From Pseudanabaena mucicola str. Chao 1806 (GTDB taxonomy: Bacteria > Cyanobacteriota > Cyanobacteriia > Pseudanabaenales > Pseudanabaenaceae), in the NCBI RefSeq assembly GCF_030323025.1, contig NZ_CP097329.1:961001-1025000 (forward strand): a stretch of 64,000 nt of DNA, given 5' to 3'. Numbering within the stretch: position 1 is the stretch's first letter; the number at the start of each line of letters is the position of its first letter. Both the position numbers and the translations under genes were made by a program. This document shows positions 15,007-34,191 of this stretch, piece after piece. The notes under the pieces are model-generated. The model was given only the letters and a program-made list of their open reading frames with translations, had not been told where the DNA came from and made no database searches.

Positions 15007-15069
15007 GGTGTCCTAATCAGACTGACGACAGCTATAATTTAATCAAAGATCCTAAGTCAAGAGTTAACT

Positions 15070-15846: not shown

Positions 15847-15897
15847 AACCCAAGAAGCTAGTGGCGGCGCGAAGCGCCGCCACTAGCTTCTTGGGTT
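15847..15897. repeat. Long perfect hairpin at the Uma2 stop codon
   Basis: Arms AACCCAAGAAGCTAGTGGC... and the exact reverse complement close over GGCGCGAAGCGCC. It begins at the base following the TAA. Its layout matches the hairpin after drmA. It lies 24 bp before drmB and may shape expression of the arm. Confidence 0.88.
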
Positions 15898-15920
15898 GAC
15901 TATGGCTATAAATCAAAAAA

Positions 15921-17789: not shown

Positions 17790-17790
17790 A

Positions 17791-17946
17791 AACTGATGTT
17801 ACGTGGAAGTTTCTAAGACCCTCACCCCTAGCCCCTCTCCCATTAAGGGAGAGGGGAACAAGAAATTAGTCTAGCTCCCCCTCTCCCATCGAGGGAGAGG
17901 GGGCAGGGGGGGTGAGGGTGATATTTGTTCCACGGTAACATCAGTT
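17791..17946. mobile_element. MITE-like repeat with TIR AACTGATGTTACGTGGAA (copy 1)
   Basis: The ends AACTGATGTTACGTGGAA and TTCCACGGTAACATCAGTT are inverted repeats. The inside holds the GC-rich units CTCACCCCTAGCCCCTCTCC and GGGAGAGGGGGCAGGGGGG. It starts 2 bp after drmB. A full second copy is at 40601 and a half copy at 41307. The internal unit also resembles the in-frame insertion in drmMI at 23210. Confidence 0.88.
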
Positions 17947-17977
17947 AAAAAGATCAAATAGATAGAAGCGGTCTTTT

Positions 17978-18046
17978 GTAGGGGCAGAGCATTCCTGCCA
18001 AAATTTAGGCTTTACACCACAGTGTTACAACAGGAATGCTCTGCCC
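17978..18046. repeat. MITE-like repeat, GTAGGGGCAGAGCATT family
   Basis: GTAGGGGCAGAGCATTCCTG at the left is mirrored by CAGGAATGCTCTGCCC at the right, with an AT-rich centre. It is one of several related copies in this window (18086, 20592, 20715, 25388). Confidence 0.85.
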
Positions 18047-18085
18047 AGAAATTAACGCTATTAAAGGTTATCTGCAAACCGAGGA

Positions 18086-18159
18086 AGAGGGTAGAGCATT
18101 TGCAGATCTAGATTTCAGTGATGATTTAAAAATTGTGGCGCAAATGCTCTACCCCTACA
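18086..18159. repeat. MITE-like repeat, GGGTAGAGCATTTGC variant
   Basis: GAGGGTAGAGCATTTGC is mirrored by GCGCAAATGCTCTACCCCTA. It ends 15 bp before the drmC start and so supplies the drmC leader. An apparent longer drmC frame from 18133 is only this repeat being read through. Confidence 0.85.
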
Positions 18160-18174
18160 AATTTTTGTGTAATT

Positions 18175-18981
18175 ATGTTCAAACCAATTTTTGTTGATGC
18201 GCTCAAAGGATTAGCTCTGTCTCTGCCCGATCGCCTACTACCCGAATTAATCAAAATCATGGCGATGATTCCTAATCAGGATAAAGATCGCTCTTACTAT
18301 TGGAAATATTTGCTGTCACAAAAGGTGACATCGCAGGAATTACGCGATCGCCTATATAAATTTATTGCCATTTGGCAAGAACTGCATCCAGAGGTTAGCG
18401 CTGAGGCTTTGCATTTGGCTTTGCTGTCGGCGATGGAACTGGGGCGAGAGTTGCAAAAAAGTTATGAGGTACAGCCAATCTGGACGATGCCCGATCAGGC
18501 GGGGGAATGGAATCGGCAAACGGAACCGACGATTTTAGAATTAATCCATCAAAGTCGTGAGGAGCTATTGCTGATTAGCTTTGCGGTGTATGATATCCCT
18601 GAGATTGTGTCGGCGATGCGGAAGGCATTGGCGCGGCGAGTGATGATTACGATGATTGTGGAGATGCCCGAACGTGCTGATAAGGTTCCCTTTGGGGTGT
18701 TGCAGACTTTTCCTGCGGATATGATTGAGCAGTTACAGATTTATTATTGGGCGGTGGGTAAAAGACCTGTGAACTCAAAAGGGAAGTATGGATCTTTGCA
18801 TATTAAGGGAGTAATTAGCGATCGCCATCGGGTGTTAATCAGTAGCGCAAATCTGACAAAATATGCAATGGATTTAAATCTAGAGCTAGGGTTATTAACG
18901 GATCAGGCGAAGTTAGCCAAGCAGATTCACCGCACCTTTGATGTTTTAATTCGCGATCGCGTCTTGATTCCTTTTCGTTAG
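18175..18981 (+). CDS. drmC: DrmC, DISARM phospholipase-D-family protein
   Basis: I choose the ATG at 18175 (MFKPIFVDALKGLALSLPD), because the upstream 14 codons lie in a repeat. The 268-residue product has an N-terminal helical part. A PLD-like fold follows, with ELIHQSREELLLISFAVYD and a single HxKxxxxD site in LHIKGVISDRHR, then LISSANLTKYAMDLNLELG. One HKD motif per chain suggests a dimeric active site, as in Nuc-type enzymes. In DISARM this component was reported as not essential in at least one system. It closes the plus-strand arm. Confidence 0.92.
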   Translation: MFKPIFVDALKGLALSLPDRLLPELIKIMAMIPNQDKDRSYYWKYLLSQKVTSQELRDRLYKFIAIWQELHPEVSAEALHLALLSAMELGRELQKSYEVQPIWTMPDQAGEWNRQTEPTILELIHQSREELLLISFAVYDIPEIVSAMRKALARRVMITMIVEMPERADKVPFGVLQTFPADMIEQLQIYYWAVGKRPVNSKGKYGSLHIKGVISDRHRVLISSANLTKYAMDLNLELGLLTDQAKLAKQIHRTFDVLIRDRVLIPFR

Positions 18982-19147
18982 TTTTAATTTGTTGCGATAT
19001 GATTGGTTTAATGTTGCATGGAGCAGGCAAAATGACACAGGCAATTATTCATGATTCGAGCAAGCAAAATGCTCAAATTTCTGATAATTCTTCAAGTTAA
19101 CCGCGATGTGGAGGCAATTATGACAGTAAACTTTTGGGAATAACGCG

Positions 19148-19759
19148 ATGATTGCGAATCTTAAAAATAATTTCTTAACACCTGAAGAGTATTTGGCATG
19201 GGAAGCGGAGCAGCAGGTGCGCCATGAATATATTGATGGTCTGGTGTATGCGATGGCTGGTGGCACGATCGCTCACAATGATATCGCTTTAAATGTTTAC
19301 AATGCACTGCGATCGCATTTAAAAGCGATGGGATGTCGCATTAATGTCGCTGATGTGAAGGTGCAAGACAGGAATGCTTCAAAATATTTCTATCCTGATG
19401 TAGTAGTAAGTTGTCATGAGAGCGATCGCCAATCGCGTGAGGTGATTGCGTTCCCTAAGTTGATTATCGAAGTTCTATCACCAAGTACGGCGGGTTTTGA
19501 TCGGGGTGATAAGTTTAAATATTATCGGCGTTTTCCGAGTTTATTGGAGTATGTGTTGATTGATGCGGAGAAGATTAATATTGATGTGTATCGGCGGGAA
19601 GATATGGGTAAGTGGGTGTTGACGAGTTATCCAGAAGATTTTGAGGGAACTGATCATGCTGATTTGTTTGAGTTAACGAGTATTAATTTTCAATGCTCTT
19701 TGGCGTTGATTTATGAAGATGTGGAGTTGTTGCTAGTATCGGAGACTTATCAGGATTAA
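19148..19759 (+). CDS. Uma2-family (DUF820) protein
   Basis: The 203-residue product has the full short Uma2 form: FLTPEEYLAWEAEQQVRHEY, GLVYAMAGGTIAHNDIALN, NVADVKVQDRN, FYPDVVVSC, KLIIEVLSPSTAGFDRGDKF and YVLIDAEKINIDVYRR. The Asp of YPD and the Glu of IIEV are the conserved acidic residues. It is followed 4 bp later by the MNT gene, so the three genes 19148-20500 may form one transcript. Function of the family is not established. Confidence 0.9.
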   Translation: MIANLKNNFLTPEEYLAWEAEQQVRHEYIDGLVYAMAGGTIAHNDIALNVYNALRSHLKAMGCRINVADVKVQDRNASKYFYPDVVVSCHESDRQSREVIAFPKLIIEVLSPSTAGFDRGDKFKYYRRFPSLLEYVLIDAEKINIDVYRREDMGKWVLTSYPEDFEGTDHADLFELTSINFQCSLALIYEDVELLLVSETYQD

Positions 19760-19763
19760 TATT

Positions 19764-20126
19764 ATGAATGAATTGCGATCGCTTACTTTTGATGGCACGG
19801 TATTGATGCCCGATCGCCTCCAAACATTACTTACAGAGCTAAAGCTGAAATTACAGAAACTTTATGGCGATCGCCTATTTACATTGTTGCTTTATGGCTC
19901 GGTGGCAAGGGGTGAGGCGAATGCGGATTCGGATATTGATATTTTGGTGGTGCTACGCGATCGCGTAGCACCGATGTCAGAAATTCGACGGATGGCAGAT
20001 ATTAAGTTAGATTTTTTGCTGGAATTTGGCGAACTGCTTTCAATTATGCCTATGTCTTTGGATGAGTTTAATGACAATTCTGCTTCGTTTATAAATAGCA
20101 TTCGCCGAGATGGAATTTCTCTATGA
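19764..20126 (+). CDS. MNT-type nucleotidyltransferase (antitoxin-like partner of HEPN)
   Basis: The 120-residue protein has the polymerase-beta-like motif LLYGSVARGEANADSDIDIL, where GS and the Asp pair bind nucleotide and metal, and a later Asp in IKLDFLLEF. MNT proteins paired with HEPN proteins form type VII-like toxin-antitoxin modules, in which the MNT enzyme can AMPylate the HEPN toxin. It overlaps the HEPN gene by 4 bp (ATGA), showing tight coupling. Confidence 0.9.
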   Translation: MNELRSLTFDGTVLMPDRLQTLLTELKLKLQKLYGDRLFTLLLYGSVARGEANADSDIDILVVLRDRVAPMSEIRRMADIKLDFLLEFGELLSIMPMSLDEFNDNSASFINSIRRDGISL

Positions 20127-20500
20127 GCGACTTACAAAGGTTTATCGCATTATCCAAAGAAGAGTTAGAAACGGCGCAATTGCTTATAGATGCGAGGCGT
20201 TATCGTTTATGTTTGTCTCGTTCTTACTATGCAATGTACTATGCTGCTCAGGCGTTGTTGTTGTCAGAAGGTTTGGAAGTTTCTACTCATAAGGGTTTGA
20301 TTAAGTTATTTGGTTTACATTTTGTAAAAACGGGGAAGATTAGCGCCGATTTGGTAAAGTCTCTAGCAAGTGCCTATGACGATCGCCAATTGAGCGATTA
20401 CAATGTGCGGTTTGAGCCTGAAGAAAATGATGCACTAATGGCAATTGAGGAAGCAAAAAGATTTACGCAGGCAGTTTTTGTATTACTCAAAGTAGTTTAG
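20123..20500 (+). CDS. HEPN-domain protein (toxin-like partner of MNT)
   Basis: The 125-residue protein is all-helical with the HEPN landmarks RSYYAMYYAAQALLLSEG and HKGLIKLFGLHFVKTG, and ends ASAYDDRQLSDYNV. The RxxxxH RNase motif is not clearly present, so RNase activity is uncertain. Paired with the MNT gene upstream by a 4-bp overlap. It lies between drmC and drmMI, pointing toward the latter. Confidence 0.88.
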   Translation: MSDLQRFIALSKEELETAQLLIDARRYRLCLSRSYYAMYYAAQALLLSEGLEVSTHKGLIKLFGLHFVKTGKISADLVKSLASAYDDRQLSDYNVRFEPEENDALMAIEEAKRFTQAVFVLLKVV

Positions 20501-20591
20501 CCGCGATTGCGATGTGGATTGTGGCAATTGGCGAAAATACACGGGAGGCGATCGCTAGGCTTCGCCATGATGTTTTTTAATATTTTTTCAG

Positions 20592-20661
20592 GTAGGGGCA
20601 AAGCATTCCCATAGGGGTTGATGATGTTTACCGAAAGTTTGTCAATGGGAATGCTTTGCCC
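20592..20661. repeat. MITE-like repeat, GTAGGGGCAAAGCATT family
   Basis: GGTAGGGGCAAAGCATTCCC is mirrored by GGGAATGCTTTGCCC. The centre contains TTGATGATGTTTACCG. Same family as 17978. Confidence 0.85.
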
Positions 20662-20714
20662 AAATCTGGGGCGATCGCAGTTTGTCTGTGAGGGCGGGGG
20701 GACAAATGGCGAAA

Positions 20715-20852
20715 GAAGAGGATAAAGCATTTGCGAATAAAGGTTATTTATGATTGTTCAAGATTGTGGCGCAAATAGAAGAGGGTAAAGCATTTGCGAA
20801 TAAAGGTTATTTATGATTGTTCAAGATTGTGGCGCAAATGCTTTACCCCTAC
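20715..20852. repeat. Tandem duplicate of the GGGTAAAGCATTTGC repeat, 63-bp period
   Basis: Two copies of a 63-bp unit follow each other: each runs GGATAAAGCATTTGCGAATA or GGGTAAAGCATTTGCG, then AAGGTTATTTATGATTGTTC and GATTGTGGCGCAAAT. Only the second copy has the full right end GCTTTACCCCTACG. This looks like a repeat whose left part was duplicated. It overlaps the stop of drmMI by a few bases. Confidence 0.9.
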
Positions 20853-23800
20853 GATTGATTGATTTTGCCCAAAAGATTCATTTGCCTCTTATCAACGAAT
20901 TTTTCCTTTTTCCTTTTTCCTTTTTCCTTCCCAACTCCTGCCTTAACCTCTTCGGCATATCTCGCATGGTTGAGGGCAAGGAGGCGATCGAGGATGTCGC
21001 GGCGGGCGGTTTCGCTAATGGTAAATCTTAGTCCTTGTTTGGTTTGGTGGAAGTTGTGGTTTAGGGGATTGGTAATTGCGGATTGGTGATTGGTGATTGG
21101 TGATTGCGGATTGGTGATTGTTCCATTACCCATTACCAATTCCCCATTACCCATTACCAATTCCCCATCACCTATTACCAAATCTAGCCACCCATATGCT
21201 TTCATCACTGCATAATCCATCTGTATATGCAGTTCCCGAAGTTGCTGGATATCGGCGGCGGTGTCGTTGGGGTCGTGGAAGCGGTTATAGGTTTTGGTGA
21301 GTCCGAGTTGGGTGGTTTGCATGATCTGCTGACGATGGTTGTAATATTTCTCTCCTATTGTTTCTAGTTCTTTTTCTGTTTCTGGGGTGAGGGTTGGGAA
21401 TGGGAAGGTTTCAAGAACATCTGTTGGTGAATAGTTAATACCAGCATCTCTCATTGTTGAGCTATATTGCCAAGCCCAATGCACATGAATATCAGATTGA
21501 AGCAAAGAGAAATAGACGGAATTAGAATCAGGAAAAACAACTAACTTTTCATTAAATACATACTCGTTAGGCACAAATGAAAAAATGAGCATTTTAGAGA
21601 CGCGAGCGCAAACTAAAACCCGATCGCATTGGGCGATCGCCTCATAAAGTTCTTTTCGTGGTCCTCCGTAAAGCCACCAATCTCTGGCAATTGTCTTGTT
21701 AAAATGATTGATTGGTGGTTTAGTTATTCTTTCAGGCTTAACCAATCTCTCAACAATTTCTAGGCAATCAGGATAATCGGTCGCATAGGGCGCACCTTTA
21801 GGCTTTTTCGGATCATCATGTTCTGGTGACAATGCCCAATCAAAAAAGTTAATCACCCATCGCGAAGGAGATTGATCGTAATTGCTATTGACATCTGAAC
21901 CATTGAGATAAGGAAATAAAACATCTTTATTTTTAGAGTTCTTCGTAATTAAAGCTTTAGCTTCCTCTGGTTCAAGCACAAATCCCATTCCAACAACATT
22001 AGAACCTTGAAAAGATTTACTTTCATTTGCTTTCAATTTTTCAGGAGTTCCCATAGAATTACTGCTAACTGATAGATAGGACGTGATCCCATCAACTTCT
22101 TTCTCATTAATAAAATACTTGCCTTCCCAACCACCTTTTTTCGCCCAAACATAAGCAACCTCTAGCGCCGCAGTACCAGACCAAGGACGACTAGGCACAG
22201 AACGATAGATTTCCCCTATTTTTACTACTTGATCTAACCCAATTTCTCTTGTATCACCTTGCGCGATGGTATTTGTAGCAACTAAACCAAAACATCCATC
22301 TTGCTTCAATAAATTGATAACCCGCAAAAAGAAATAAGCGCAAAAATCAGCTGTTCCTCGATTACCTCTAATTCCACTAGCTAGATGGTTAACAAGATAA
22401 TCACGATAAGCACCTCCAAAATTAGGGAACAATTTCAGTCCACCCATAAACGGCGGATTGCCACAAATTGCATCAAAACCGCTCCCTTCGGCTCCGCTCA
22501 GGGTGCGGTGGTCAGATAACTTACGCTGGCTGAGCGAAGCCGAAGCCAAAACCACACTAGCCCCTAAAAACACCTCTGGAAACTCCAACTCCCAATGAAA
22601 CGGGCGCAACGCCTCCAAATTAGGCAAAATCTCACGCTGCGAATCGCTCACACTCATATCACCATTCGCCACCAACAGCAACTCACGGCGCAAATCATCC
22701 TGCTGCGACCTCTTGCAACTCGCCAAATACGACATCACCAACAAATCCGCCCGATCCTTCAGATCCTTTAACCGCGCTTGCGACTCCATTAAAAGCAACT
22801 CCTTCTTTACCCGATCGCCCAATGAATTGACAGCAAAACTCTCAAGCTGCATCCGCTTAGAAATAGCCTCCCGAATCCGATTCCACACCTCATTAATCCC
22901 CATTCCCAATTGATGAATATGACTCGACACATCCAAATCCCAAAACCGCAACTGCTCCACCGTCACCCCCACCAACGAATCCCCACACCGCAACGCATGA
23001 TCCACAAACGTAAACGGCTTATCCTTCTGCAAAGTCTCCAACCATAACGACAACTTCGCCATCTCCACCGCCAAAGGATTCTTATCCACCCCATACACAC
23101 AACGCTCCGCAATCAACCGCTTCGCCACAATCAAGCGATCAGCCTCATCATCAGGAATCAAAGGCTCATCCAGATCAGGCTTAGAAACATTTCCGAAGAC
23201 AGTGAAGACAGCCCTCACCCCCAGCCCCTCTCCCAGAGGGAGAGGGGAGCCAGAAAGATCTCTTGTTCCCCCTCTCCCAAGGGGCGAGGGGGCTAGGGGG
23301 TGAGGGCTTCCCAACCTCTCCCAACTCTCCAACAACCGCGCCGCCAAATACCGACAAACCTGCACCAAAAACGCCCCCGAACCCATCGTCGGATCGCAAA
23401 TTTTTAAACTCAAAATCTCCTGCGGCGACCTTAACCTCCATTCCGCCTGCGGCAAACCCTCACTCACCCCCACATACACCAACGGCTCCAACGTATAGCG
23501 CACAATCTCCTCCGTCAAAGCCTTCGGCGTATAGTGAGTCCCCGACTCCCGCCGATCTGTCCCCGCCGTCACATACACCGACCCTGCACTAATAATCACA
23601 GGATACTCCCGCGAATCCTTCCGAATTAACCGATAAAAAGGCTTAACCCGATGCCAAAGCGCCAGATCATTGCCACAACGAGTTAAATAACGCGATTCTT
23701 CGTAATGGGACAAATTGGTAATTGGTGATTGCGGGTTGGTAATTGGTGATTGGTAATCGGTGATTGGCTTACTTTGCATTCCCAATTCCCCATCACCCAT

Positions 23801-25336
23801 CACCAATTCCCGATTCCCAATTCCCAATTCCCGATCAAAACTAAGCAACTTTTTCAACGCCGCCTCACCCCTTCCCGTCTCCTTCTTCAGAAACTTGAGC
23901 AACACCTCCTCACCCTGCGCCGCCAACGCCTCCAAATCCTCTAATAAAATCTCAGGTTCCTTATTTTTTGTCCCCTCCAAACCCAAAACCGTCGAATTAG
24001 ACCGCACCGCCTGATGATCCAGCAAACCCTCATAGACATGACCGATCTGCTCCACCTCGATCGCCTTGAAACTCAAACGGCGCGGCTCAAAACCACCCCC
24101 CGCCACCTTGATTCTCAGGATTTGCAACGACTCCAACAAATGTAACACCGTGCGATTATCCACAGCGATCGGTTCATCATGCCCCTCAAAACGTCCCTCC
24201 AAAAATGGAAACGCATCAGGATCAAACAAATTGCCACCATAGGCAGGCAGCTTAAAATTAGGATGATAAACACCCCCATGCACCGCCCGAAATAGCGCCA
24301 TCAACCGACACCAAGCATCATGGCGACGTTCTAAGATCTCCTCACCACTATGATCGGCGATCGCCCGCAAACTCTCCTGCAAAGTCGAAACCGCATAATT
24401 CTTGTCATAGCGCTCCTCACCCAATAGCAATAAGCCACGCTCCTCCGCACATAGCAAAAACACCAAGCGCATCATCACAAAACAAGCCGCCTGATATAGC
24501 TCCTGCGTCGATACCCCCGCCAACATTCGCCCCTGATGATCCGTATCAATTTCCGCTAACTTTTGAATCAGGATTTCGACCGCCTTGCGTACCTGTAGCC
24601 CCAGCTGATCGGTAACTTCCTGTTGCGAATTTTTGGAGCGATCGCACAGACTCACCAAAGTATCCTGCTCCTGCACCCCAAAGAAGCGCTCCACCCCCAG
24701 CAAATCCCGAAAAGCGCGTAAAGTAATCTTCTCCTCAATCCAAATATTCGCATACCAAGAAACCGTCGATGAAGTCCCACCCTGCGGCGCATAGACCAGC
24801 ATCCATTCTTCACCATTAGTAATCAATCCCAAACTCACCCGCAGCCCCCGCAATAGCTCCACCATCCGCGTCACAGGCGAAGCCGACCAATTGGAACTTC
24901 TAGTTATGCCCTTATAAGTTCCCTCCAATTTTTGATTTGGTTCAAAAATCTGAATCAACAACTCAGGCTTATTTGCCCTCTGAGGATCACGCGGATCGAC
25001 CAATACCCAATCAGGAATCAGCGTTTCCTGTTGCTGCTCCAACCGCACCCGCCAATGCTCGCCAATCTCCTGCCCCGTTTTCAAATATTCCTGCGGATAG
25101 CCCAAAGTATTTAGCAACACCCATTCCACCCATACACGATGAATCTCTTGATCAATAGAGCGATCGCGCTGTTCCTGTCCCCACTCCGCATAAACCTGTT
25201 TCAAGAGCGCAAAATGCTCGCTATCATGGGCGCTCAACCCCTGCGGAAATACCTCTAGCAATACCTCCATACTCAAAAATGAGCCAACAATATCAAGGAG
25301 GCTTAACCATTCAGCATGATGACGGGCGATCGACAT
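20849..25336 (-). CDS. drmMI: DrmMI-type adenine-specific DNA methyltransferase (class 1 DISARM)
   Basis: The 1495-residue product is a large Eco57I/PglX-like N6-adenine methylase. SAM motif I is DPTMGSGAFL (Asp648) and catalytic motif IV is NPPFMGG (Asn960). Its N-terminal part (QQETLIPDWVLVDPRDPQ) resembles the recognition or regulatory part of such enzymes. In class 1 DISARM this methylase marks host DNA. Three stretches are unlike the family and match intergenic repeats of this genome: residues about 501-542, 677-709 and 1387-1425. The C-terminal tail (EKGKRKKEKF) is also read from a TTTTTCC-type repeat. The frame stays open throughout. It points toward drmC, opposite to the drmA arm. Confidence 0.88.
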   Translation of the reverse strand: MSIARHHAEWLSLLDIVGSFLSMEVLLEVFPQGLSAHDSEHFALLKQVYAEWGQEQRDRSIDQEIHRVWVEWVLLNTLGYPQEYLKTGQEIGEHWRVRLEQQQETLIPDWVLVDPRDPQRANKPELLIQIFEPNQKLEGTYKGITRSSNWSASPVTRMVELLRGLRVSLGLITNGEEWMLVYAPQGGTSSTVSWYANIWIEEKITLRAFRDLLGVERFFGVQEQDTLVSLCDRSKNSQQEVTDQLGLQVRKAVEILIQKLAEIDTDHQGRMLAGVSTQELYQAACFVMMRLVFLLCAEERGLLLLGEERYDKNYAVSTLQESLRAIADHSGEEILERRHDAWCRLMALFRAVHGGVYHPNFKLPAYGGNLFDPDAFPFLEGRFEGHDEPIAVDNRTVLHLLESLQILRIKVAGGGFEPRRLSFKAIEVEQIGHVYEGLLDHQAVRSNSTVLGLEGTKNKEPEILLEDLEALAAQGEEVLLKFLKKETGRGEAALKKLLSFDRELGIGNRELVMGDGELGMQSKPITDYQSPITNPQSPITNLSHYEESRYLTRCGNDLALWHRVKPFYRLIRKDSREYPVIISAGSVYVTAGTDRRESGTHYTPKALTEEIVRYTLEPLVYVGVSEGLPQAEWRLRSPQEILSLKICDPTMGSGAFLVQVCRYLAARLLESWERLGSPHPLAPSPLGRGGTRDLSGSPLPLGEGLGVRAVFTVFGNVSKPDLDEPLIPDDEADRLIVAKRLIAERCVYGVDKNPLAVEMAKLSLWLETLQKDKPFTFVDHALRCGDSLVGVTVEQLRFWDLDVSSHIHQLGMGINEVWNRIREAISKRMQLESFAVNSLGDRVKKELLLMESQARLKDLKDRADLLVMSYLASCKRSQQDDLRRELLLVANGDMSVSDSQREILPNLEALRPFHWELEFPEVFLGASVVLASASLSQRKLSDHRTLSGAEGSGFDAICGNPPFMGGLKLFPNFGGAYRDYLVNHLASGIRGNRGTADFCAYFFLRVINLLKQDGCFGLVATNTIAQGDTREIGLDQVVKIGEIYRSVPSRPWSGTAALEVAYVWAKKGGWEGKYFINEKEVDGITSYLSVSSNSMGTPEKLKANESKSFQGSNVVGMGFVLEPEEAKALITKNSKNKDVLFPYLNGSDVNSNYDQSPSRWVINFFDWALSPEHDDPKKPKGAPYATDYPDCLEIVERLVKPERITKPPINHFNKTIARDWWLYGGPRKELYEAIAQCDRVLVCARVSKMLIFSFVPNEYVFNEKLVVFPDSNSVYFSLLQSDIHVHWAWQYSSTMRDAGINYSPTDVLETFPFPTLTPETEKELETIGEKYYNHRQQIMQTTQLGLTKTYNRFHDPNDTAADIQQLRELHIQMDYAVMKAYGWLDLVIGDGELVMGNGELVMGNGTITNPQSPITNHQSAITNPLNHNFHQTKQGLRFTISETARRDILDRLLALNHARYAEEVKAGVGKEKGKRKKEKFVDKRQMNLLGKINQS
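21062..21178. repeat. In-frame GATTGGTGATTGG / CCATTACCCATTACC repeat in drmMI (3' part)
   Basis: Clustered GGATTGGTGATTGGTGATTG and CCCATTACCAATTCCCCATT units lie within the methylase frame and read as Gly/Asn/Asp-rich units (MGNGELVMGNG, ITNPQSPITN). The same repeat type lies at 23711. It is a common low-complexity repeat of cyanobacterial intergenic DNA. Confidence 0.88.
23210..23307. repeat. In-frame CTCACCCCCAGCCCCTCTCC repeat in drmMI (middle)
   Basis: The segment matches the GC-rich palindromic core of the MITE-like repeats at 17791 and 40601. Read in the methylase frame it gives HPLAPSPLGRGG ... SPLPLGEGLGVRA, about 30 extra residues shortly after SAM motif I, without frame loss. Confidence 0.88.
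23711..23836. repeat. In-frame GGTAATTGGTGATTG / CCCAATTCCCGATT repeat in drmMI (5' part)
   Basis: Read in frame this gives GIGNRELVMGDGELGMQS and ITDYQSPITNPQSPITN, about 40 residues placed before motif I. It matches the insertion at 21062. Confidence 0.88.
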
Positions 25337-25387
25337 AGATTTAGACGTGATGTAAATATATTAAAAATATTAAAAAATTAAAATCTC

Positions 25388-25458
25388 GTAGGGGTAGAGC
25401 ATTTGCGTATTAAGGTTTTCTTTGAATTTCTAAATTGTCGCGCAAATGCTCTACCCTC
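25388..25458. repeat. MITE-like repeat, GTAGGGGTAGAGCATTTGCG family
   Basis: GTAGGGGTAGAGCATTTGCG is mirrored by CGCGCAAATGCTCTACCC. It lies in the drmMI leader, between the methylase start and the DUF433 gene. Another fragment (GGGGCAAAGCATTG) is at 25504. Confidence 0.85.
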
Positions 25459-25529
25459 TTCATTCTCGCGCAGTTGAATAGATAGTTGATTATAGCGAGG
25501 GTTTGGGGCAAAGCATTGTCGTTAGAGAT

Positions 25530-25718
25530 TTAAGCTGCATAAGATAGAGCCGCAAAAATATCTTCTTTCTCTAAATAAGGATAAGCCTCCAAAATTTTAT
25601 CAGGAGAATAGCCAGCCGCCACCAGCCCCACGATAGTTCCCACTGTGATCCTCATTCCTCTTATACAGGGCTTACCACCCATCACCGCAGGATTAAACGT
25701 AATTCGTTGTAATTTCAT
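25530..25718 (-). CDS. DUF433 protein (antitoxin-like)
   Basis: The 62-residue product is a complete DUF433 protein: RITFNPAVMGGKPCIRGMRI, VGTIVGLVAAGYSPDKIL and YPYLEKEDIFAALSYAA. DUF433 has a winged-helix-like fold and is often paired with a DUF5615/PIN-like gene as a toxin-antitoxin module. No such partner is visible next to it here; the upstream neighbour is a broken DUF29 gene. Orphan antitoxin or remnant. Confidence 0.88.
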   Translation of the reverse strand: MKLQRITFNPAVMGGKPCIRGMRITVGTIVGLVAAGYSPDKILEAYPYLEKEDIFAALSYAA

Positions 25719-25732
25719 TAGTTGATATCTCC

Positions 25733-26158
25733 TTAATTAACTTCGTTAACTTGCTCAAAAATTTGATTAATCGTAAAGGGACAAACTTCAGGAAATAGAT
25801 TTAAACCCGTCTCTCTTTCCGCCGCAATTACCGCCAACTTATACACCTTATCTAGCCGAGAAACCAGATGCGCTTTGAGACTAGGACTATCTTCTAGCAT
25901 TGATTGTAGTCGCATTCTCTGCTCCTTAATCGTCAATTCTCAACTCCGTGATCGCAGATTTGGCTGAAAGTTCCACTTTAATAGGTGCATAATCAAAACT
26001 TCCAAACGACTTTCTAAAGCTCTTTTTTCAGAACGACCCATATCGGCAATTTCTTCAGCTAAATGTTGCAGGTCAAGGGCTTCAAATTGTCCTAATTGCA
26101 AAAACTGCGCCTGATCCTGAGTCCAAGCATAAAAATCGCGATCGTAAGTGCTAGTCAT
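25733..26158 (-). pseudogene. DUF29 gene interrupted by one in-frame TGA
   Basis: Two frames, 26158-25940 and 25936-25733, are in the same reading frame, separated by TGA (25942-25940) and GAA. Joined, they give a normal DUF29 protein of about 140 residues: DRDFYAWTQDQAQFL, LAEEIADMGRSEKRALESR, MHLLKWNFQPNLRSRS, stop, then ELTIKEQRMRLQSMLEDSPS and GLNLFPEVCPFTINQ. Family members usually have Trp where the TGA stands (SWxLTIKEQR), so TGG to TGA is the likely lesion. An internal TTG restart for the second half is possible but unproven. Confidence 0.85.
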
Positions 26159-26308
26159 GACAATAGCTCCATTGAAACTACATACATCTTAAATCACGAC
26201 TGTTAAAATGTTTACAATACCGATTGATTTATTAGACAATCTACTCGTTTTTTTAAGTTAAAATCAGAGCATATAAACCTTTTAATCTATAGTTAACGCC
26301 CAAAAGCC

Positions 26309-26563
26309 ATGCAAGTTACTATTGAAATATCCGATGAAATAGCATTACAGGCAAATCGAACAGGATTTTCTGTGCAAGAATTTATCACGCAAGCAATTCA
26401 AAAATATATACATCAAGAAGTTCCTTTAGTTAATACCCAAACTTGGCAACTGTGTGGCGGATTGCAGGTTAAGAATAATCTAGATGTAGCGATTCATAAC
26501 GATCTAAATGTGGTTACAAACTATGCTGAGAGTATTGATGACGTTCTTTATGGCAATTTGTGA
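26309..26563 (+). CDS. Probable antitoxin of a VapBC-like pair
   Basis: The 84-residue product opens MQVTIEISDEIALQANRTGF, a form seen in many cyanobacterial antitoxin-like proteins preceding PIN-domain genes. It has no strong family signature beyond that. Its stop codon TGA shares bases with the ATG of the PIN gene, so the two are translationally coupled. The role is inferred from this pairing. Confidence 0.75.
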   Translation: MQVTIEISDEIALQANRTGFSVQEFITQAIQKYIHQEVPLVNTQTWQLCGGLQVKNNLDVAIHNDLNVVTNYAESIDDVLYGNL

Positions 26564-26967
26564 TGACAGAAGTTCTAGTTGATACATCAGCACTAATTGC
26601 TTTTTTTGTTGGCTCCGAGAAACACCATCTAGCTGTAAAAAACTATTTCTTATCCAATTCTGATTCAAAATGGGTAATTCTCTCAACAGTTTTTGATGAG
26701 ACAGTGACATGGCTTCGAGTCAAGATTTCAATTCGTGATTCTATTGCTGTTGGACGGCTATTACGTCAAGAGCATCGTTATGTTCCTTTATCGGAAACTG
26801 ATGATCTCGCCACTTGGGAAGCATTTTCTCGTTATGACGACAAAGCTTGGAGTTATACGGATTGTTCATTGTTGGTAATGTCTCAGCGTTTAAATATCCC
26901 TACTGTCGTAGCTCTAGATGATCACATTCGACAAATGCGTGGTTTAGGTGTCAATTGCGTTCCCTAG
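26563..26967 (+). CDS. PIN-domain protein (VapC-like RNase toxin)
   Basis: The ATG at 26563 (a GTG at 26560 is an alternative) opens a 134-residue PIN domain. Acidic residues fall where expected: Asp7 in VLVDTSALIAF, Glu in FDETVTWL, and Asp in SYTDCSLLVM and ALDDHI. PIN toxins of this type cleave RNA. It follows its presumed antitoxin with overlap and ends at the hairpin that also serves the convergent drmD gene. Confidence 0.88.
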   Translation: MTEVLVDTSALIAFFVGSEKHHLAVKNYFLSNSDSKWVILSTVFDETVTWLRVKISIRDSIAVGRLLRQEHRYVPLSETDDLATWEAFSRYDDKAWSYTDCSLLVMSQRLNIPTVVALDDHIRQMRGLGVNCVP

Positions 26968-26991
26968 CGATTTGCGCCGCGCAAATCGCTA
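26967..26991. terminator. Hairpin between the PIN gene and drmD
   Basis: Arms AGCGATTTGCG and CGCAAATCGCT meet over a small loop, followed by ATATTGAACTCACGTTAA. A fragment of the same repeat (GCCGCGCAAATAGCG ... GAACTCATGT) is at 1094-1122. It lies between two convergent genes and is a likely bidirectional stop, though it lacks a long T-run. Confidence 0.65.
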
Positions 26992-27009
26992 TATTGAACT
27001 CACGTTAAA

Positions 27010-30000
27010 TTAAAACAACTTTGGCGGTATAAGAAAGGCGATCGCTAAAGGAAATAACCTCGGTTGTGGGTCAGCATACCTTTGGCGAATAATTTCCTGC
27101 TCCTTTTTAAGTTCATCAGGAATCTGCTGGAGCCGCAACTCCAACCCTTGACGATTGCGCTCAAACTGTTCCCTCTCATCATTGCTAAACAGTTCTAGCT
27201 GTAATGGCTTATCCGTATCCGCAAGCTCCTTCTCGATACTCTGTTGCAATTCCGTCAGAATTGCCTCAATATCCGCACTCTCCTGTTGAGCGCGATCAGC
27301 TAATTGCTTTTGCAAAGAATTTTGGCGATCGCCCATCCGAGATTCCAGACTTCTTTTTAACGGCTCCGCGTAAGTATCCCATAGCCCAATCAGCTTATTA
27401 GTCATTGATTCTGGGACAGGCTCAGACGTAGCACTTTGCAATAAATTGCTGAGTTCCAATACATTCAAGCGCACAAACTTACCGCCACGAATCGCACCAC
27501 CCACCGTAATCACCTCTTCATTCAAACGCTGTTGATCGCTACCCAAAATCACCAGCCGCCCATAGGCGACGACCACAGGCTCAGCACTGAGATGATTGGG
27601 AATTTGGAGTGCGGTGACGCGATTGATCTTTTTAGTCTGTCCCCGCAACCAGACCTCGGCTCTGAGCAACCGCAAACACATCTGCACTAACCGATGATTG
27701 AGGTGGGCAAGTACCACATCATCTTTATGCCTAGCGCGATCGGGATTAAAGGTAATCGGACGGATTTCACCTGTATGGGGATGGGCTAAGCCCTGATTGC
27801 ACACCGCCCAACTGCCTCGAAATGCTTGTAAATAGAAGGCATCAGGATCATCCTCAATGGGAATTAATTCAGGCTGTCCTGCGAGATGCAGACCCACCTG
27901 TACCACCGATTGAATATTGCTTGGTTCGAGACGCAACTCCTGACGGGTCTGGTCAAGTTTCTCCTTTAGCTTCTCAATATCCTTTTGTACCTGTCGCTCA
28001 AATTTAAGTAGGCGGCGCATCGGTTCCGCATCCTTTTCCGCTTGAGCCGTATCGAGGCGCACTCGTTTGCCGAGCATCGCTTCCTCCACCTGTGCAGCGA
28101 TCACGGGACCAACCTTGCCCAAGTCCTCACGGATATTATTAATCTTCAACGCCGCCCGCATCAAAAATTCCAGATCACCTTCGAGATCGCCCGCCTTCAC
28201 ATCACGCATCACCTGATTTTGATAGCCCTGTCCCACAAAGTGATAGATCTGCACCTTGTCCGCCCTTTGTCCGTGGCGATCGATCCGTCCATTGCGCTGT
28301 TCCATGCGATTCGGATTCCAAGGGATTTCGTAATGGATTAACTTCGAGCAGTAATTTTGCAAATCCAAACCCTCAGAAGCGGCATCAGTCGCCAGCAAGA
28401 TCCGTACAGGCGAAACTTGGGGATGGGTTTGAAAGGCAGCTTTTACTTTTTCGCGATCGTCGCTATTCATGCCACCATAGAGCGTCATCAGGCGATCGCC
28501 CTGTCCTAACCCACGACTGAGCAACAAATCTGCTAACCATTTTTGCGTAGTCCGATATTCCGTAAAAATAATTACGCGCTCCTCTGACCATTGCCCATTG
28601 GGTCGAATATGTTGATCTATCCAAGTAAGTAATTGCTCAGCTTTGCTATCAACTTGACGCGCTGTTTGTTCCGCCCAAGCCTTTAGATCTGAGAGTAAAT
28701 TTTGCTCTTGCGTCGATAGCGATCGCCATAGCACTGTACTTGTCGCGATCGCCGCCGATGTTGATTCTTCATAGAGATCATCATCGGCAAATTCTTCTTC
28801 AATATCTTCAATCTGTCGCCGCAATAGCCCCACCGATGGCTGCGCTAAACGTTTTGATAGACTTTTACCCTTTTTGAGTGATTCCTCATGCTTGATTAAA
28901 GTCGTCAAAAAGGCTTGAGGACTAGAGAATAAGCGCTTTTTTAGCAATTTCAATACAAACTCAGTGGCAGTCTGCTCTAGCTTATTAGTCGCCCCTTCTC
29001 TTCGCAATTTTGTATATTCATTGAGCTTGCGATTAGCTGCACGCTCGGCATCAGTATAGGGAACAGCGATCGCCTCCAAGCATCTCTCTGGAAAGCGCGG
29101 CGTACCATCCCAATTGGGCGGCAATTCCCGCTTGAGACGACGGATCATGATCAAATTCAACTGCTTAGGATCAGGTAGAATCTCCCTTGCAAAGCGTTGA
29201 GAATCCAATAGTTCCAATAGCGCCGTAAAGCTCTCACTATAACCATTATGGGGCGTTGCCGATAGAAATAACTTATGCTCACAATGGGGAACTAAAAATC
29301 TTACGGCTCCCGTTCGTTGCGAGTCCACAGCGTATCTACCACCCGCCGACGGTGCGATATTATGGGCTTCATCAACAATTAATAAATCAATCCTTCTAGG
29401 ATAGATCGACTCACCTTCCGATGGCAATGATTCGCGTAATAACCGTAACGGGCGATCGCGCTTAATAAAATCAATGGAAGTAATTAAACGCGGATAATGC
29501 CCCCAAGGATTAGTATGCAGCCCGCGCCGCCGCCGCAAATCTCGCATTAACTCACTATTCACAATCCGAAAATCTAAGCCAAACTTATCGCGCATCTGCT
29601 CTTGCCACTGCACCTGCAACGCTGATGGACAAATAATTAACATCCGATGTGCCCTTTGCCGCAAGGTTAACTCCTGCGCCACCAGTCCCGCCTCAATGGT
29701 CTTCCCTAAACCCACATCATCAGCAATCAACAGATTCACCCTTGGCATCTGCACCGCCCGCACCACAGGATCGAGTTGATAATCCTCAATGTCAATGCCA
29801 CTGCGAAAAGGTGACTGCACACCTTGGCGATCGCCCCTAGATACTGCTCCCCACTTGACCGCATCCAAAAACGCTGCAAACACTTCAGGACGATCCAAAG
29901 CACTGGGATAGGGTAATTCCCTCTCTTCAAATAGCTTTGCCCCCTTCTCTAGTTCCCATACCACCTCTAACTCTTCCCCCAAACCCTCATCCTCAATTGA

Positions 30001-30168
30001 AGCAAGAGTTAGCAAATGGTGGTTCGGCAACTTCGCAAGGTGCACAGGATTCGCCATCATGCCCGAAGCTTGGACATTCATCACCGCAAAAGTCCGACCC
30101 CGTACTTTGACTAACTGCCCTTGTTCTGGCAAGGCCTGAGCTTGTTCGTGAGCTTGATAAAATGGCAT
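27010..30168 (-). CDS. drmD: DrmD, SNF2-type helicase of class 1 DISARM
   Basis: The 1052-residue product has the full SNF2 set. Walker A ADDVGLGKT (Lys156), DEAH box IVDEAHNIAP (Asp266), motif III LSATPHNGYSES, helicase C motifs VIIFTEYRTTQKW and ATDAASEGLDLQNY, and NRMEQRNGRIDRHGQ. The opening QGQLVKVRGRTFAVMNVQAS also fits DrmD. This gene is what marks the system as class 1. Typical members stand directly next to drmMI; here DUF433, DUF29 and the PIN pair lie between. A short hairpin (30233-30255) precedes it. Confidence 0.9.
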   Translation of the reverse strand: MPFYQAHEQAQALPEQGQLVKVRGRTFAVMNVQASGMMANPVHLAKLPNHHLLTLASIEDEGLGEELEVVWELEKGAKLFEERELPYPSALDRPEVFAAFLDAVKWGAVSRGDRQGVQSPFRSGIDIEDYQLDPVVRAVQMPRVNLLIADDVGLGKTIEAGLVAQELTLRQRAHRMLIICPSALQVQWQEQMRDKFGLDFRIVNSELMRDLRRRRGLHTNPWGHYPRLITSIDFIKRDRPLRLLRESLPSEGESIYPRRIDLLIVDEAHNIAPSAGGRYAVDSQRTGAVRFLVPHCEHKLFLSATPHNGYSESFTALLELLDSQRFAREILPDPKQLNLIMIRRLKRELPPNWDGTPRFPERCLEAIAVPYTDAERAANRKLNEYTKLRREGATNKLEQTATEFVLKLLKKRLFSSPQAFLTTLIKHEESLKKGKSLSKRLAQPSVGLLRRQIEDIEEEFADDDLYEESTSAAIATSTVLWRSLSTQEQNLLSDLKAWAEQTARQVDSKAEQLLTWIDQHIRPNGQWSEERVIIFTEYRTTQKWLADLLLSRGLGQGDRLMTLYGGMNSDDREKVKAAFQTHPQVSPVRILLATDAASEGLDLQNYCSKLIHYEIPWNPNRMEQRNGRIDRHGQRADKVQIYHFVGQGYQNQVMRDVKAGDLEGDLEFLMRAALKINNIREDLGKVGPVIAAQVEEAMLGKRVRLDTAQAEKDAEPMRRLLKFERQVQKDIEKLKEKLDQTRQELRLEPSNIQSVVQVGLHLAGQPELIPIEDDPDAFYLQAFRGSWAVCNQGLAHPHTGEIRPITFNPDRARHKDDVVLAHLNHRLVQMCLRLLRAEVWLRGQTKKINRVTALQIPNHLSAEPVVVAYGRLVILGSDQQRLNEEVITVGGAIRGGKFVRLNVLELSNLLQSATSEPVPESMTNKLIGLWDTYAEPLKRSLESRMGDRQNSLQKQLADRAQQESADIEAILTELQQSIEKELADTDKPLQLELFSNDEREQFERNRQGLELRLQQIPDELKKEQEIIRQRYADPQPRLFPLAIAFLIPPKLF

Positions 30169-30398: not shown

Positions 30399-30490
30399 TA
30401 GGACTTACATAAACCGAACGAATTTATTAGACTTGAGGTAGATGTGGTGCGGGCGAAGCCCGCACCACATCTACCCAATGCGTAGTCCTA
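30399..30490. repeat. Palindromic intergenic repeat (GACTTACGCAAA family)
   Basis: Copy of the 8455 repeat: TAGGACTTACATAAACCGAA at the left, hairpin over GTGGTGCGGGCGAAGCCCGC, and ACCCAATGCGTAGTCCTA at the right. It stands 11 bp from the IS630 MITE. The remaining bases to 30624 show no gene. Confidence 0.88.
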
Positions 30491-30624: not shown

Positions 30625-31884
30625 TTAGATAATTCCGTCTGCGACCATATCTTCTCGGGTGTAATCAACAGAAAAATCTAGGACAGACGAATGAAGTTCA
30701 ATTACAGCAACTGTAGGAAAAATTCGTAATGCACTAATTCCTATGTCTTTAGGATTATCAGCTAGCCAACCAAAAGCCTCGCGAGTATGAGTATGAATGA
30801 TTAAAATTTCGCCCTCAGAATTTCTGTTTAATGATAATTCCGCTTCCCCAGGGGTCAAATACATTTCGCTATAAATTTGTCCTAGCATCCGCCACTGTTG
30901 CTGCCATGACTTCATCCCATTTTGTTCATAGGCGATCGCATATTCTGCAAGAGAAGTAATATTTCGCCATGTAATATCATCTCGTTGAAAAATGATGCGT
31001 AGCTCTTTGATAGCCTGTTCGCAATCTTCGTCAAACTTGAGATATGGAAGTGGAATAGCAAGACGACGAGGCTTTTTACTTAATGTCATCATTGCTTGAA
31101 TCACTGCTGACTCAATTTGACTAGCCATTTGCTTTTTTGCCTTTCGGTTTTGCAAAGCTAATCCTTGCTCAGTAGTTGCATACATAGGCGGTAGTCGATT
31201 GAGTACATATGCCGAGATGTCAGCAATACCAACCTTGAGCGGCAAGATATTTGCCATATTTACTAATTGATTTTTTACTTCCTGCTGCACTAAATCTTCG
31301 AGAACATTAGTAACTGAATATGAAGCAGAAATAATGTAGGAATTTAGATCAGGATTAGGTATTTCTGTGTTTAGTTGACGCCAATTTTCAAGATCATTAT
31401 CATGCCCCTTACGCCGTAAATAGCTTTTGATTTCGCGAATGCGATTGCGATCGTAGGTACTTAATTCCACATATCCTGAGGATTGCGCCACTAAGGTAAG
31501 TGTTTCTTGAAAAGCTTCTGGCACATTCTGCCATAATAGGGACGGTTTGCTAAAAAGTTTTTGTAAGTTAACCAAGACATGGGCAGGGGTTTCAACTTTT
31601 ATAGCTGTGATATGGGTGTCTTTGCGATCTGGATTACGCTTTACACCCAGTAATGCATTTTGGACGGCGCTTACAACCTGATCTCGCAACTCATTGTGGG
31701 CTCGTTTGCGCTGTTGTAACCAACCTCGGCTATTACTAGCATATAGTGCTGGCAATCGATTCAAAGCAAAGGCAGTTACTTCACTAAGGTTAATTATTTC
31801 GCGTGAAGCCTTGCTCAGTTGCTTGAGCTGATTCTGTACTTCTACGACAACGATTTCCTCAAGGACATTTTTGAGGCTAGTCAT
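30625..31884 (-). CDS. Protein with two ComFB domains
   Basis: The 419-residue product carries two copies of a ComFB-like domain. The first (about 5-100) has NVLEEIVVVEVQNQLKQLS and VTAFALNRLPALYASN. The second (about 188-290) has NVLEDLVQQEVKNQLVNM and ISAYVLNRLPPMYATTEQG. The spacing of the LNRLPxxYA motif is the same in both. Single-domain cyanobacterial ComFB proteins have been described as cyclic-dinucleotide receptors. The linker and the C-terminal 130 residues (EREAFGWLADNP-like region) are not recognised. It stands upstream of nothing obvious on its strand; HerA lies 365 bp further up. Confidence 0.75.
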   Translation of the reverse strand: MTSLKNVLEEIVVVEVQNQLKQLSKASREIINLSEVTAFALNRLPALYASNSRGWLQQRKRAHNELRDQVVSAVQNALLGVKRNPDRKDTHITAIKVETPAHVLVNLQKLFSKPSLLWQNVPEAFQETLTLVAQSSGYVELSTYDRNRIREIKSYLRRKGHDNDLENWRQLNTEIPNPDLNSYIISASYSVTNVLEDLVQQEVKNQLVNMANILPLKVGIADISAYVLNRLPPMYATTEQGLALQNRKAKKQMASQIESAVIQAMMTLSKKPRRLAIPLPYLKFDEDCEQAIKELRIIFQRDDITWRNITSLAEYAIAYEQNGMKSWQQQWRMLGQIYSEMYLTPGEAELSLNRNSEGEILIIHTHTREAFGWLADNPKDIGISALRIFPTVAVIELHSSVLDFSVDYTREDMVADGII

Positions 31885-32034: not shown

Positions 32035-32123
32035 TAGGACTTACGCATTGGGTGGATGTGATGCGGGCTTCGCCCGCATCACATCCACCTACTAATAAAT
32101 TCGTTCGGTTTGCGTAAGTCCTA
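32035..32123. repeat. Palindromic intergenic repeat (GACTTACGCAAA family), inverted
   Basis: TAGGACTTACGCATTGGGTG at left, hairpin over GATGCGGGCTTCGCCCGCATC, and TTCGGTTTGCGTAAGTCCTA at right. It is the reverse orientation of the 8455 and 30399 copies. It fills much of the gap 31885-32249; the rest is AT-rich with no gene seen. Confidence 0.9.
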
Positions 32124-32249: not shown

Positions 32250-33986
32250 TTATAGACGCTTCACTTTTTTGTCCATTATTTTTTTCTCTATTTCATTGAT
32301 CTGGACTTCTCGTAAGCGCGTTGCATAGGCTGGGAAGGGAAAACCAACTAGGAGAGGTGATGGCACTTCAGGCTGATGGATAAACATACTGCCAGACTTT
32401 AATAGCAGCGATCGCTTGCGACAGGCTCCAGTTAAAAAATTATATTCAGGGCGTTCTACTTCGGCGGAGTCAAGACGACCGACAACGCGCACTGCTGCTT
32501 GCCCGACGACACGACGCTCCACCTCAGAGGCAGTTTGTTGAGCGCCAATTAAGATGATGCCTAGCGATCGCCCGCGTTCAGCAATTTCCACTAACAAATC
32601 TTTGATCGGGCTACGACCCTCCTTGGGTGCATATTTGTTCAACTCATCGAGCACGATAAAGACTACGGGATATTGTCCGCGCTTTTCCTTTTCCATGAAC
32701 AGCTTTTGTAACAATACGCCCACGACAAACTTTTGTGCTTTGCTACCAAGTTTGTTGATATCCGCGATCGTTAACTGATATTCCGCCGCCAGAGGATCGA
32801 GCTTATACTTTTGTAACTCCTCCGCAGGCAGATCGCCGCGCACCAGATGCCCCATTTCGTCAGCAATCCCCCACATCCGACGAGTGAGCGCCTCGGCTGT
32901 CGCAGGAGCATTACGCCCTAGCCATTTCTGATCGGGATTCTCCACCAACTTATCTTCGAGAAATTCAATCAAATCTCGAAAGGTTTCCACTTTATCCTTG
33001 CCATCTTCGCCATAGCTATCATCTAAATCGAGACTAGTTCTTGGCAAAAATCCTAACTTCTTATCATACTTGTCATTATCCGCAGCTAGTCTGGCTAAGC
33101 GCTCCTCAACAATACTCGCTAAAAAGCCAATATTTCCTCGCTCTAGGTCATCACCTGCAAATAAGAAACGAAATAGGCGATCGCGACAAAATTCACGCAT
33201 TCCCCAGACATAGGCGGAAATATTATCGGAACGTTGATCGAGATGGGGTTCGATTTCCTGAGTATTTTTCTTAGGCGCAACGCAAAATCTGACATCACGG
33301 AATGGTTCTACGGGTAGATCGAGAATGTGATAACTCGCATGATCCTCTTCCCTTATTTTGTTATTAGGCTTATCTAAAAAGAATAAATCTTCTCCCTTAA
33401 CATTAAAAATTAGCGCCTTCGTATTTGCTCTCTTAGAACCTAGGGCTGCTGAATTGAAAATGGAATGGAGAATAAACAGGGCAAAGGAAGTCTTGGTCGC
33501 CACACCTGAAATCCCTGAAATATTGACATGAGCGCCCTTTGTGCCATCGATAAATTCGTAATTCAAATAGGCAGGACTGCCATTTCGCATGATTCCTGCG
33601 GAGATGCGCTGCTCCATACCATCAAAATTCAATGCAAAGCGCAAATTCTCATCTTCGGCTAAATAGACTGCATCGCTAGGTTGTGGTGGCAGATATTCTT
33701 CAGGTTCAATGCGAGTGACTTGGATATGTGCGGCATAGGAGACATTTACGGGCATACTGCCAGTGGTAACGAGAAATGTATCCGTATCAAATTGGGTTCC
33801 TTCATGAATAGTTCGCACATGATCGACGACACCATAGAAGTTGACGACACCTTTTTTATCGGGGCGATCGGTTTTCACCTGCACGACATCATCCAGACGT
33901 AGGACTTTGCCATCACTTACCGCTACCCAAAACTCAAGGGGGGTCGCATCTTTGGTTCCCAAGATATATCCTATCGGCTCGATCAT
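32250..33986 (-). CDS. HerA-like ATPase with HAS-barrel N-terminus
   Basis: The frame is open from 34073, but that would overlap the small ORF upstream. The ATG at 33986 (MIEPIGYILGTKDATPLEFW) starts directly with the HAS-barrel and is preferred, giving 578 residues. The P-loop region reads ISGISGVATKTS, which differs from the canonical GxxxxGKS because Thr precedes the Lys. Walker B-like VVFIVLDELNKYAP and the sensor block ILIGAQQTASEVERRVVG are typical of HerA/FtsK-type DNA translocases (DUF87). HerA-like motors often work with a nuclease; no NurA gene is next to it. Role: DNA handling, partner unknown. Confidence 0.85.
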   Translation of the reverse strand: MIEPIGYILGTKDATPLEFWVAVSDGKVLRLDDVVQVKTDRPDKKGVVNFYGVVDHVRTIHEGTQFDTDTFLVTTGSMPVNVSYAAHIQVTRIEPEEYLPPQPSDAVYLAEDENLRFALNFDGMEQRISAGIMRNGSPAYLNYEFIDGTKGAHVNISGISGVATKTSFALFILHSIFNSAALGSKRANTKALIFNVKGEDLFFLDKPNNKIREEDHASYHILDLPVEPFRDVRFCVAPKKNTQEIEPHLDQRSDNISAYVWGMREFCRDRLFRFLFAGDDLERGNIGFLASIVEERLARLAADNDKYDKKLGFLPRTSLDLDDSYGEDGKDKVETFRDLIEFLEDKLVENPDQKWLGRNAPATAEALTRRMWGIADEMGHLVRGDLPAEELQKYKLDPLAAEYQLTIADINKLGSKAQKFVVGVLLQKLFMEKEKRGQYPVVFIVLDELNKYAPKEGRSPIKDLLVEIAERGRSLGIILIGAQQTASEVERRVVGQAAVRVVGRLDSAEVERPEYNFLTGACRKRSLLLKSGSMFIHQPEVPSPLLVGFPFPAYATRLREVQINEIEKKIMDKKVKRL

Positions 33987-34002
33987 GTCACTATGTTCTA
34001 CG

Positions 34003-34191
34003 TTATTTTCCAAGTATATAGCGCTTTCCCAGCAAGTGCGGATGAATGCAATTAGGTTTGAGATCGTTGTCAATAATTTCTTGGAAACGCTCCTGTACTA
34101 ACTTTTTTAGAGCTTCGGGTATTTTAGGACTTGGCTCTTTTTTTGGAGAATATACCCATTCATGCTTTGATCTTGATTTCGATCTTGCCAT
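34003..34191 (-). CDS. Small hypothetical protein upstream of the HerA-like gene
   Basis: The 62-residue frame opens MARSKSRSKHEWVYSPKKEP and continues KIPEALKKLVQERFQEIIDN, rich in Lys and Arg. It ends 16 bp before the preferred HerA start, so the two are probably co-transcribed. The ending (GKRYILGK) looks abrupt, and a longer ancestral protein is possible. I do not recognise a function. Confidence 0.55.
   Translation of the reverse strand: MARSKSRSKHEWVYSPKKEPSPKIPEALKKLVQERFQEIIDNDLKPNCIHPHLLGKRYILGK

What the first reader, a model, noticed from the sequence alone, without database searches (positions are those of the whole stretch)
30625..31884. Protein with two ComFB domains
The motif LNRLPxxYA and preceding helix VLExxVxxEVxNQL recur about 195 residues apart. 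Usual ComFB proteins have one domain and act as cyclic-dinucleotide receptors; a tandem form could sense two ligands or work as an internal dimer.
Basis: partly seen in the sequence, partly recalled or inferred. Interest (0 to 1): 0.6.

Follow-up and report, generated by a model that had tools for sequence, protein, structure and literature searches.

The report
Double-domain ComFB receptor of Pseudanabaena
This gene encodes a protein with two fused copies of ComFB, a domain whose studied cyanobacterial members bind cyclic dinucleotide signals; every genome searched in this cyanobacterial order carries several such double proteins, and none was found in the other cyanobacteria sampled.

Summary
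The 419-residue protein at 30625-31884(-) carries two ComFB domains (PF10719; residues 5-85, 66 bits; 193-272, 73.5 bits). The motif spacing is 187 residues, not 195. The duplicated unit is larger than ComFB: about 130 residues, ComFB plus a conserved helical extension. The protein ends in an alpha/beta domain of no known family. It is not a one-off: the genome holds five tandem ComFB proteins plus one ordinary CdgR-type protein, all 38 genomes searched in the order carry tandems, and none of 350 other cyanobacterial genomes showed one. N and C halves cluster by position, so the tandem arose before the paralogs split. This paralog keeps the dimer-interface residues (N, E, Y) and an E15/Q58 signature in both halves (20/20); the other four paralogs have lost the signature in the second half. 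I read it as a receptor for c-di-GMP and/or c-di-AMP that carries its own pseudo-dimer, with two candidate sites. Binding, pairing mode and output are inferred, not shown. A sister paralog lies directly behind a CheW gene in 8/8 loci, which hints at control of pili or motility. New variant of a known kind.

The parts
30625..31884 (-). Tandem ComFB protein, paralog A, 419 aa (whole gene)
   Evidence: ORF; two PF10719 matches; orthologs across the family
31630..31872 (-). ComFB domain 1, residues 5-85
   Evidence: PF10719 66.2 bits; AF2 of this half matches 8HJA Z 13.1, 1.8 A over 85 residues
31477..31629 (-). Conserved helical extension 1, residues about 86-136 (L104, W118, P122)
   Evidence: alignment, model
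31351..31476 (-). Poorly conserved linker, residues about 137-178; segments 137-142, 145-148 and 153-175 have pLDDT under 50
31069..31308 (-). ComFB domain 2, residues 193-272
   Evidence: PF10719 73.5 bits; model matches 8HJA Z 8.7, 1.9 A over 92 residues
30922..31068 (-). Conserved helical extension 2, residues about 273-321 (D303, W307, N308)
   Evidence: alignment, model
30628..30912 (-). C-terminal alpha/beta domain, residues about 325-419, found only in A-type tandem proteins in the sample searched
   Evidence: no Pfam or PDB sequence relative; 13/13 family genomes, 0/132 others

Best explanation
The protein is a soluble cyclic-dinucleotide receptor of the CdgR/ComFB kind, built as a single chain with two ComFB units. 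The two units most likely pack on each other through the known ComFB dimer surface, so that one chain does what a CdgR homodimer does. In this paralog both units keep the residues that single-domain receptors keep, so each chain should hold two ligand sites (c-di-GMP and/or c-di-AMP). Ligand binding would change how the unit, or the paralog-specific C-terminal domain, contacts a partner that controls pili, motility, competence or transcription. Shown here: architecture, distribution, conservation pattern, and genes for making both messengers. Inferred: ligand binding, pairing mode and output.
For: Two PF10719 domains. Half 1 matches the c-di-GMP-bound structure 8HJA at Z 13.1, half 2 at Z 8.7. 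Dimer-contact residues N6/E9/Y48 and N193/E196/Y235 are kept in 20/20 A-type orthologs; E15 and Q58, kept by nearly all single-domain proteins, are kept in both halves of A (20/20), but in the C halves of B-E only in 0/68 and 2/68. The whole-chain AF2 model has pLDDT 82 and pTM 0.69. The genome has one DAC domain and nine GGDEF domains. Single-domain relatives bind c-di-AMP and c-di-GMP with micromolar affinity and are dimers (PMC12313861); CdgR binds two c-di-GMP per dimer (PMC13075795). Sister paralog E follows a CheW gene in 8/8 loci.
Against: No binding data. The ligand contacts of 8HJA could not be read here, so it is not known that E15 or Q58 touch the ligand. Single CdgR-type proteins have an N-terminal extension of about 65-80 residues that the tandem lacks; if it takes part in binding, the tandem may differ. 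In paralog E the changes at the E7 and Y46 positions fall in the same half, which would also suit pairing between chains. The target has no conserved gene neighbour.
Confidence: 0.55

Rival explanations
1. Receptor paired between chains: domain 1 pairs with domain 1 and domain 2 with domain 2 of another chain, so the tandem is an elongated dimer or a polymer rather than an internal dimer. Ligand binding may control the assembly.
For: In paralog E, E7 is replaced by a hydrophobic residue and Y46 by F within the same half in 9/9 proteins, a pattern expected if a half pairs with its own copy. The linker is long and partly disordered. Single ComFB proteins pair as identical chains (PMC4381287).
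Against: The paralog E change is one inherited event. Whole-chain pTM 0.69 favours packed domains within a chain. The two halves have diverged to 35/135 identical positions, yet both keep the interface residues.
Confidence: 0.25
2. Scaffold without ligand binding: the tandem has kept the ComFB fold and dimer surface as a protein-protein module and has lost or never used dinucleotide binding; regulation comes through partners.
For: Four of five paralogs have lost the shared E15/Q58 signature in one half. The literature read here reports zinc but no dinucleotide for B. subtilis ComFB (PMC4381287). A CdgR-type single protein remains in the genome and could be the only receptor.
Against: In the target both halves keep the LNRLP motif, E15 and Q58 in 20/20 orthologs, the same constraint as in single-domain proteins that do bind.
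Confidence: 0.2

Closest known systems
CdgR / cyanobacterial ComFB (syn_CdgR, PDB 8HJA; Synechocystis Slr1970; Nostoc Alr3277)
   Same: ComFB fold in each half (Z 13.1 and 8.7), LNRLPxxYA motif, dimer-contact residues N/E/Y, E15 and Q58.
   Different: One domain per chain with an N-terminal extension of about 65-80 residues; no helical extension of the tandem type and no C-terminal alpha/beta domain. This genome also has its own CdgR-type gene.
Single 'ComFB-ext' proteins of other cyanobacteria (about 165-205 aa, e.g. L012, L171, L186)
   Same: ComFB plus the same helical extension as each half; closest sequence relatives of the halves.
   Different: One unit per chain; no functional study found under this architecture.
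Bacillus subtilis ComFB (PDB 4WAI)
   Same: Fold (Z 9.3 for half 1, 6.3 for half 2) and dimer-contact residues N, E, Y.
   Different: Short single-domain obligate homodimer with a four-cysteine zinc site; the target has no cysteine at all.

Membership tests
ComFB (PF10719) | Match to the Pfam profile over the curated cut-off, in each half | tested here: met
   66.2 and 73.5 bits against a cut-off of 25
ComFB (PF10719) | ComFB fold | tested here: met
   Half 1 to 8HJA Z 13.1, 1.8 A, 85 residues; half 2 Z 8.7, 1.9 A, 92 residues
ComFB (PF10719) | Dimer-contact residues N4, E7, Y46 (B. subtilis numbering) | tested here: met
   Both halves, 20/20 A-type orthologs; contacts from PMC4381287
CdgR-type c-di-GMP / c-di-AMP receptors | Binds c-di-GMP and/or c-di-AMP | not testable with these tools
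   Only conservation and homology are available; ligand contacts of 8HJA could not be read here
CdgR-type c-di-GMP / c-di-AMP receptors | Single ComFB domain behind an N-terminal extension of about 65-80 residues (as in the CdgR-type rows here) | tested here: not met
   Domain 1 starts at residue 5 and there are two domains; filed as a tandem relative, not as CdgR itself
Bacillus-type zinc ComFB | Zinc site of four cysteines | tested here: not met
   No cysteine in the 419 residues (sequence)

The most novel reading that the evidence does not exclude
The tandem is a two-input device: the two diverged ComFB sites of one chain prefer different messengers (c-di-AMP and c-di-GMP) and pass the combined result to the unknown C-terminal domain, while the sister paralogs are one-site versions wired to separate outputs, one of them a CheW chemosensory pathway.
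Probability: 0.1. Interest if true: 0.75.

Novelty: new variant of a known kind. Interest (0 to 1): 0.45.

Why it matters
ComFB/CdgR receptors were tied to c-di-GMP and c-di-AMP only recently, and it is open how one fold serves both messengers and how the dimer passes on the signal. A lineage that carries five double-domain versions, one with both halves intact and four with one half altered, offers natural single-chain constructs in which the two sites can be changed separately.

Tried and rejected
Chance repeat: rejected, both halves match Pfam with E below 1e-17. Recent internal duplication in this one genome: rejected, halves cluster by position over many species. In the larger tree the C halves grouped with the single ComFB-ext clade; in the reduced tree one clade of all tandem halves was not rejected (p-AU 0.52), so duplication versus fusion of two paralogs stays open. 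Operon partner for the target: none conserved among 22 A-type loci. Part of the DISARM system next door: no PADLOC match for the target, and the window's neighbours recur in none of the other A-type loci. Spread by phage or plasmid: no tblastn match in either collection. C-terminal domain fold: only middling matches (Z 5-6.5) to many unrelated alpha/beta proteins, not interpretable; the domain was not folded alone. DSSP comparison of the whole chain with half 1 alone (bridge residues 51, 91, 238, 278 appear only in the tandem model): compatible with domain-domain contact, but such bridges could lie within a domain, so not used as proof. The 2023 PNAS paper on CdgR was looked up by a DOI recalled from memory and is not held.

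Full report
Observation. The ORF at 30625-31884 on the minus strand encodes 419 residues. Pfam finds ComFB (PF10719, cut-off 25 bits) in each half when they are scanned separately: 66.2 bits at residues 5-85 and 73.5 bits at 193-272. LNRLP begins at residues 41 and 228, a spacing of 187.

What is repeated. An alignment of 20 diverse tandem proteins and a comparison of halves show that the repeated unit is about 125-130 residues: ComFB followed by a helical extension with conserved L104, W118 and P122 in the first copy and D303 and N308 in the second. The two units of the target are identical at 35 of 135 aligned positions. After the second unit the target carries about 95 more residues (325-419), predicted as an alpha/beta domain, mostly at pLDDT near 90. 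This part matches no Pfam family over its cut-off and no PDB chain by sequence at a meaningful E-value. It occurs only in A-type tandem proteins: 13 of 13 family genomes in that sample and 0 of 132 others.

Not a one-off. The genome (4.53 Mb, one contig) has 11 ComFB domains over the cut-off. They form five tandem proteins, here called A (the target), B, C, D and E, and one single-domain CdgR-type protein. All 38 genomes of the order that were searched have 7-12 ComFB domains. With the tandem profile all 38 give tandem matches (best E 6e-77 or lower; one is cut by a contig end), while the best match among 350 other genomes of the class is 6e-48. In 20 of those others, which include the strongest scorers, each ComFB domain lies at its own place, although two genomes of one family (f11) have single ComFB genes side by side. 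Contigs of the unnamed same-genus relatives have the same lengths as named contigs of Pseudanabaena frigida, P. mucicola and P. cinerea, so the window most likely comes from a Pseudanabaena.

Origin. In a tree of 113 units, C halves group together and lie next to the single ComFB-ext proteins of other cyanobacteria; N halves lie elsewhere; CdgR-type units form their own long branch. In a reduced set of 58 units the N, C, ext and CdgR units each form one cluster, and a single clade of all tandem halves is not rejected (p-AU 0.52). In the reduced set I counted two split or truncated rows (L160, L146) with the halves they resemble. The halves cluster by position rather than by protein, so the tandem formed before the paralogs split, probably early in this order. 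Internal duplication versus fusion of two neighbouring genes is open. Neighbouring single genes exist elsewhere (L182), and in one relative (L160) a tandem is split over two adjacent ORFs.

Structure and residues. Half 1 alone matches syn_CdgR with c-di-GMP (8HJA) at Z 13.1, 1.8 A over 85 residues and 33% identity, and B. subtilis ComFB (4WAI) at Z 9.3. Half 2 in the full model matches 8HJA at Z 8.7. In B. subtilis ComFB, N4, E7 and Y46 hold the obligate dimer together, as shown by mutagenesis (PMC4381287). Their equivalents are N6, E9, Y48 and N193, E196, Y235, and they are kept in both halves of 20/20 A-type orthologs. Two further positions are kept by nearly all single-domain proteins: E15 (CdgR-type 10/10, ext-type 24/26) and Q58 (9/10 and 23/26). 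N halves of the five paralogs keep E15 in 88/88 and Q58 in 79/88. C halves keep both in paralog A (20/20), but in paralogs B-E keep E15 in 0/68 and Q58 in 2/68, where the residues are mostly hydrophobic. So, within this genus, A is the paralog with two intact-looking halves. Outside the genus A-type C halves vary: L046 keeps E15, L050 and L045 do not (read from the alignment). These two positions were picked after looking at the data, and many rows are close relatives, so the counts are not independent events.

Mechanism. Published work shows that Synechocystis ComFB is a dimer that binds c-di-AMP (about 2.6 uM) and c-di-GMP (about 1.7 uM), and that its loss alters pili, motility proteins and competence (PMC12313861). 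CdgR of Anabaena binds two c-di-GMP per dimer and acts partly through DevH on cell size (PMC13075795). The present genome encodes one diadenylate cyclase domain and nine GGDEF domains, so both messengers are likely made. The simplest reading is that the target is a single-chain version of such a dimer with up to two ligand sites, and that the C-terminal domain carries a paralog-specific output. The whole-chain model has pTM 0.69 in spite of a disordered linker, which favours packed domains, but no coordinates or PAE were available to measure the contact. The joint changes in paralog E could also suit pairing between chains.

Context. The target has no gene neighbour conserved in all its orthologs: a MutS-like gene lies next to it in several and a 4-alpha-glucanotransferase-like gene in others (names read from the sequences). 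In this genome it lies beside a DISARM system, which looks incidental. By contrast, paralog E is directly preceded by a CheW-domain gene in 8/8 loci, with a 144-bp gap in this genome, and paralog C lies between a DUF3318 gene and a glutaredoxin gene in about 20 of 26 loci. The CheW link fits the pilus and chemotaxis effects reported for comFB (PMC12313861).

Verdict. It is a new variant of a known kind. Only 20 papers of the open library contain the word ComFB; none of the titles, abstract openings or passages I read mentions a tandem form. Subscription papers and supplements could not be searched.

Noticed in passing
L039:9282-10976 (own genome C1:1372282-1373976): Tandem ComFB paralog E lies directly behind a CheW-domain gene (PF01584, E 3e-14; 144-bp gap), conserved in 8/8 loci: a candidate operon joining a ComFB receptor to a chemosensory or pilus pathway.
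   Followed up: partly
window 10998-30168: DISARM defence genes: DrmA 10998-14954, DrmB 15921-17789, DrmC 18133-18981 on the plus strand; DrmMI 20849-25336 and DrmD 27010-30168 on the minus strand (PADLOC). DrmMI contains short repeated peptides of the GDGELVMGNGEL and ITNPQSPITN type (read).
   Followed up: partly
window 32035-32123, also 8455-8547 and a related stretch near 30399-30490: MITE-like element of about 90 bases with inverted ends TAGGACTTACGCA; 40 full-length or near full-length matches at 87-100% identity are listed in the genome. Two related copies flank the target gene.
   Followed up: partly
window 32250-34073: HerA-like ATPase gene just upstream of the target, weak PADLOC HerA match only (E 1.7e-8).
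   Followed up: no
window 49618-52104: 828-residue protein with a long GVAGGVAVGVAFGVA repeat ahead of an ATPase-like part (read).
   Followed up: no
L160:1021-2024 and L182:7265-8892: A tandem ComFB split over two adjacent ORFs (L160), and two adjacent single ComFB-ext genes in Symploca (L182): possible picture of the state before fusion, or of later splitting.
   Followed up: partly
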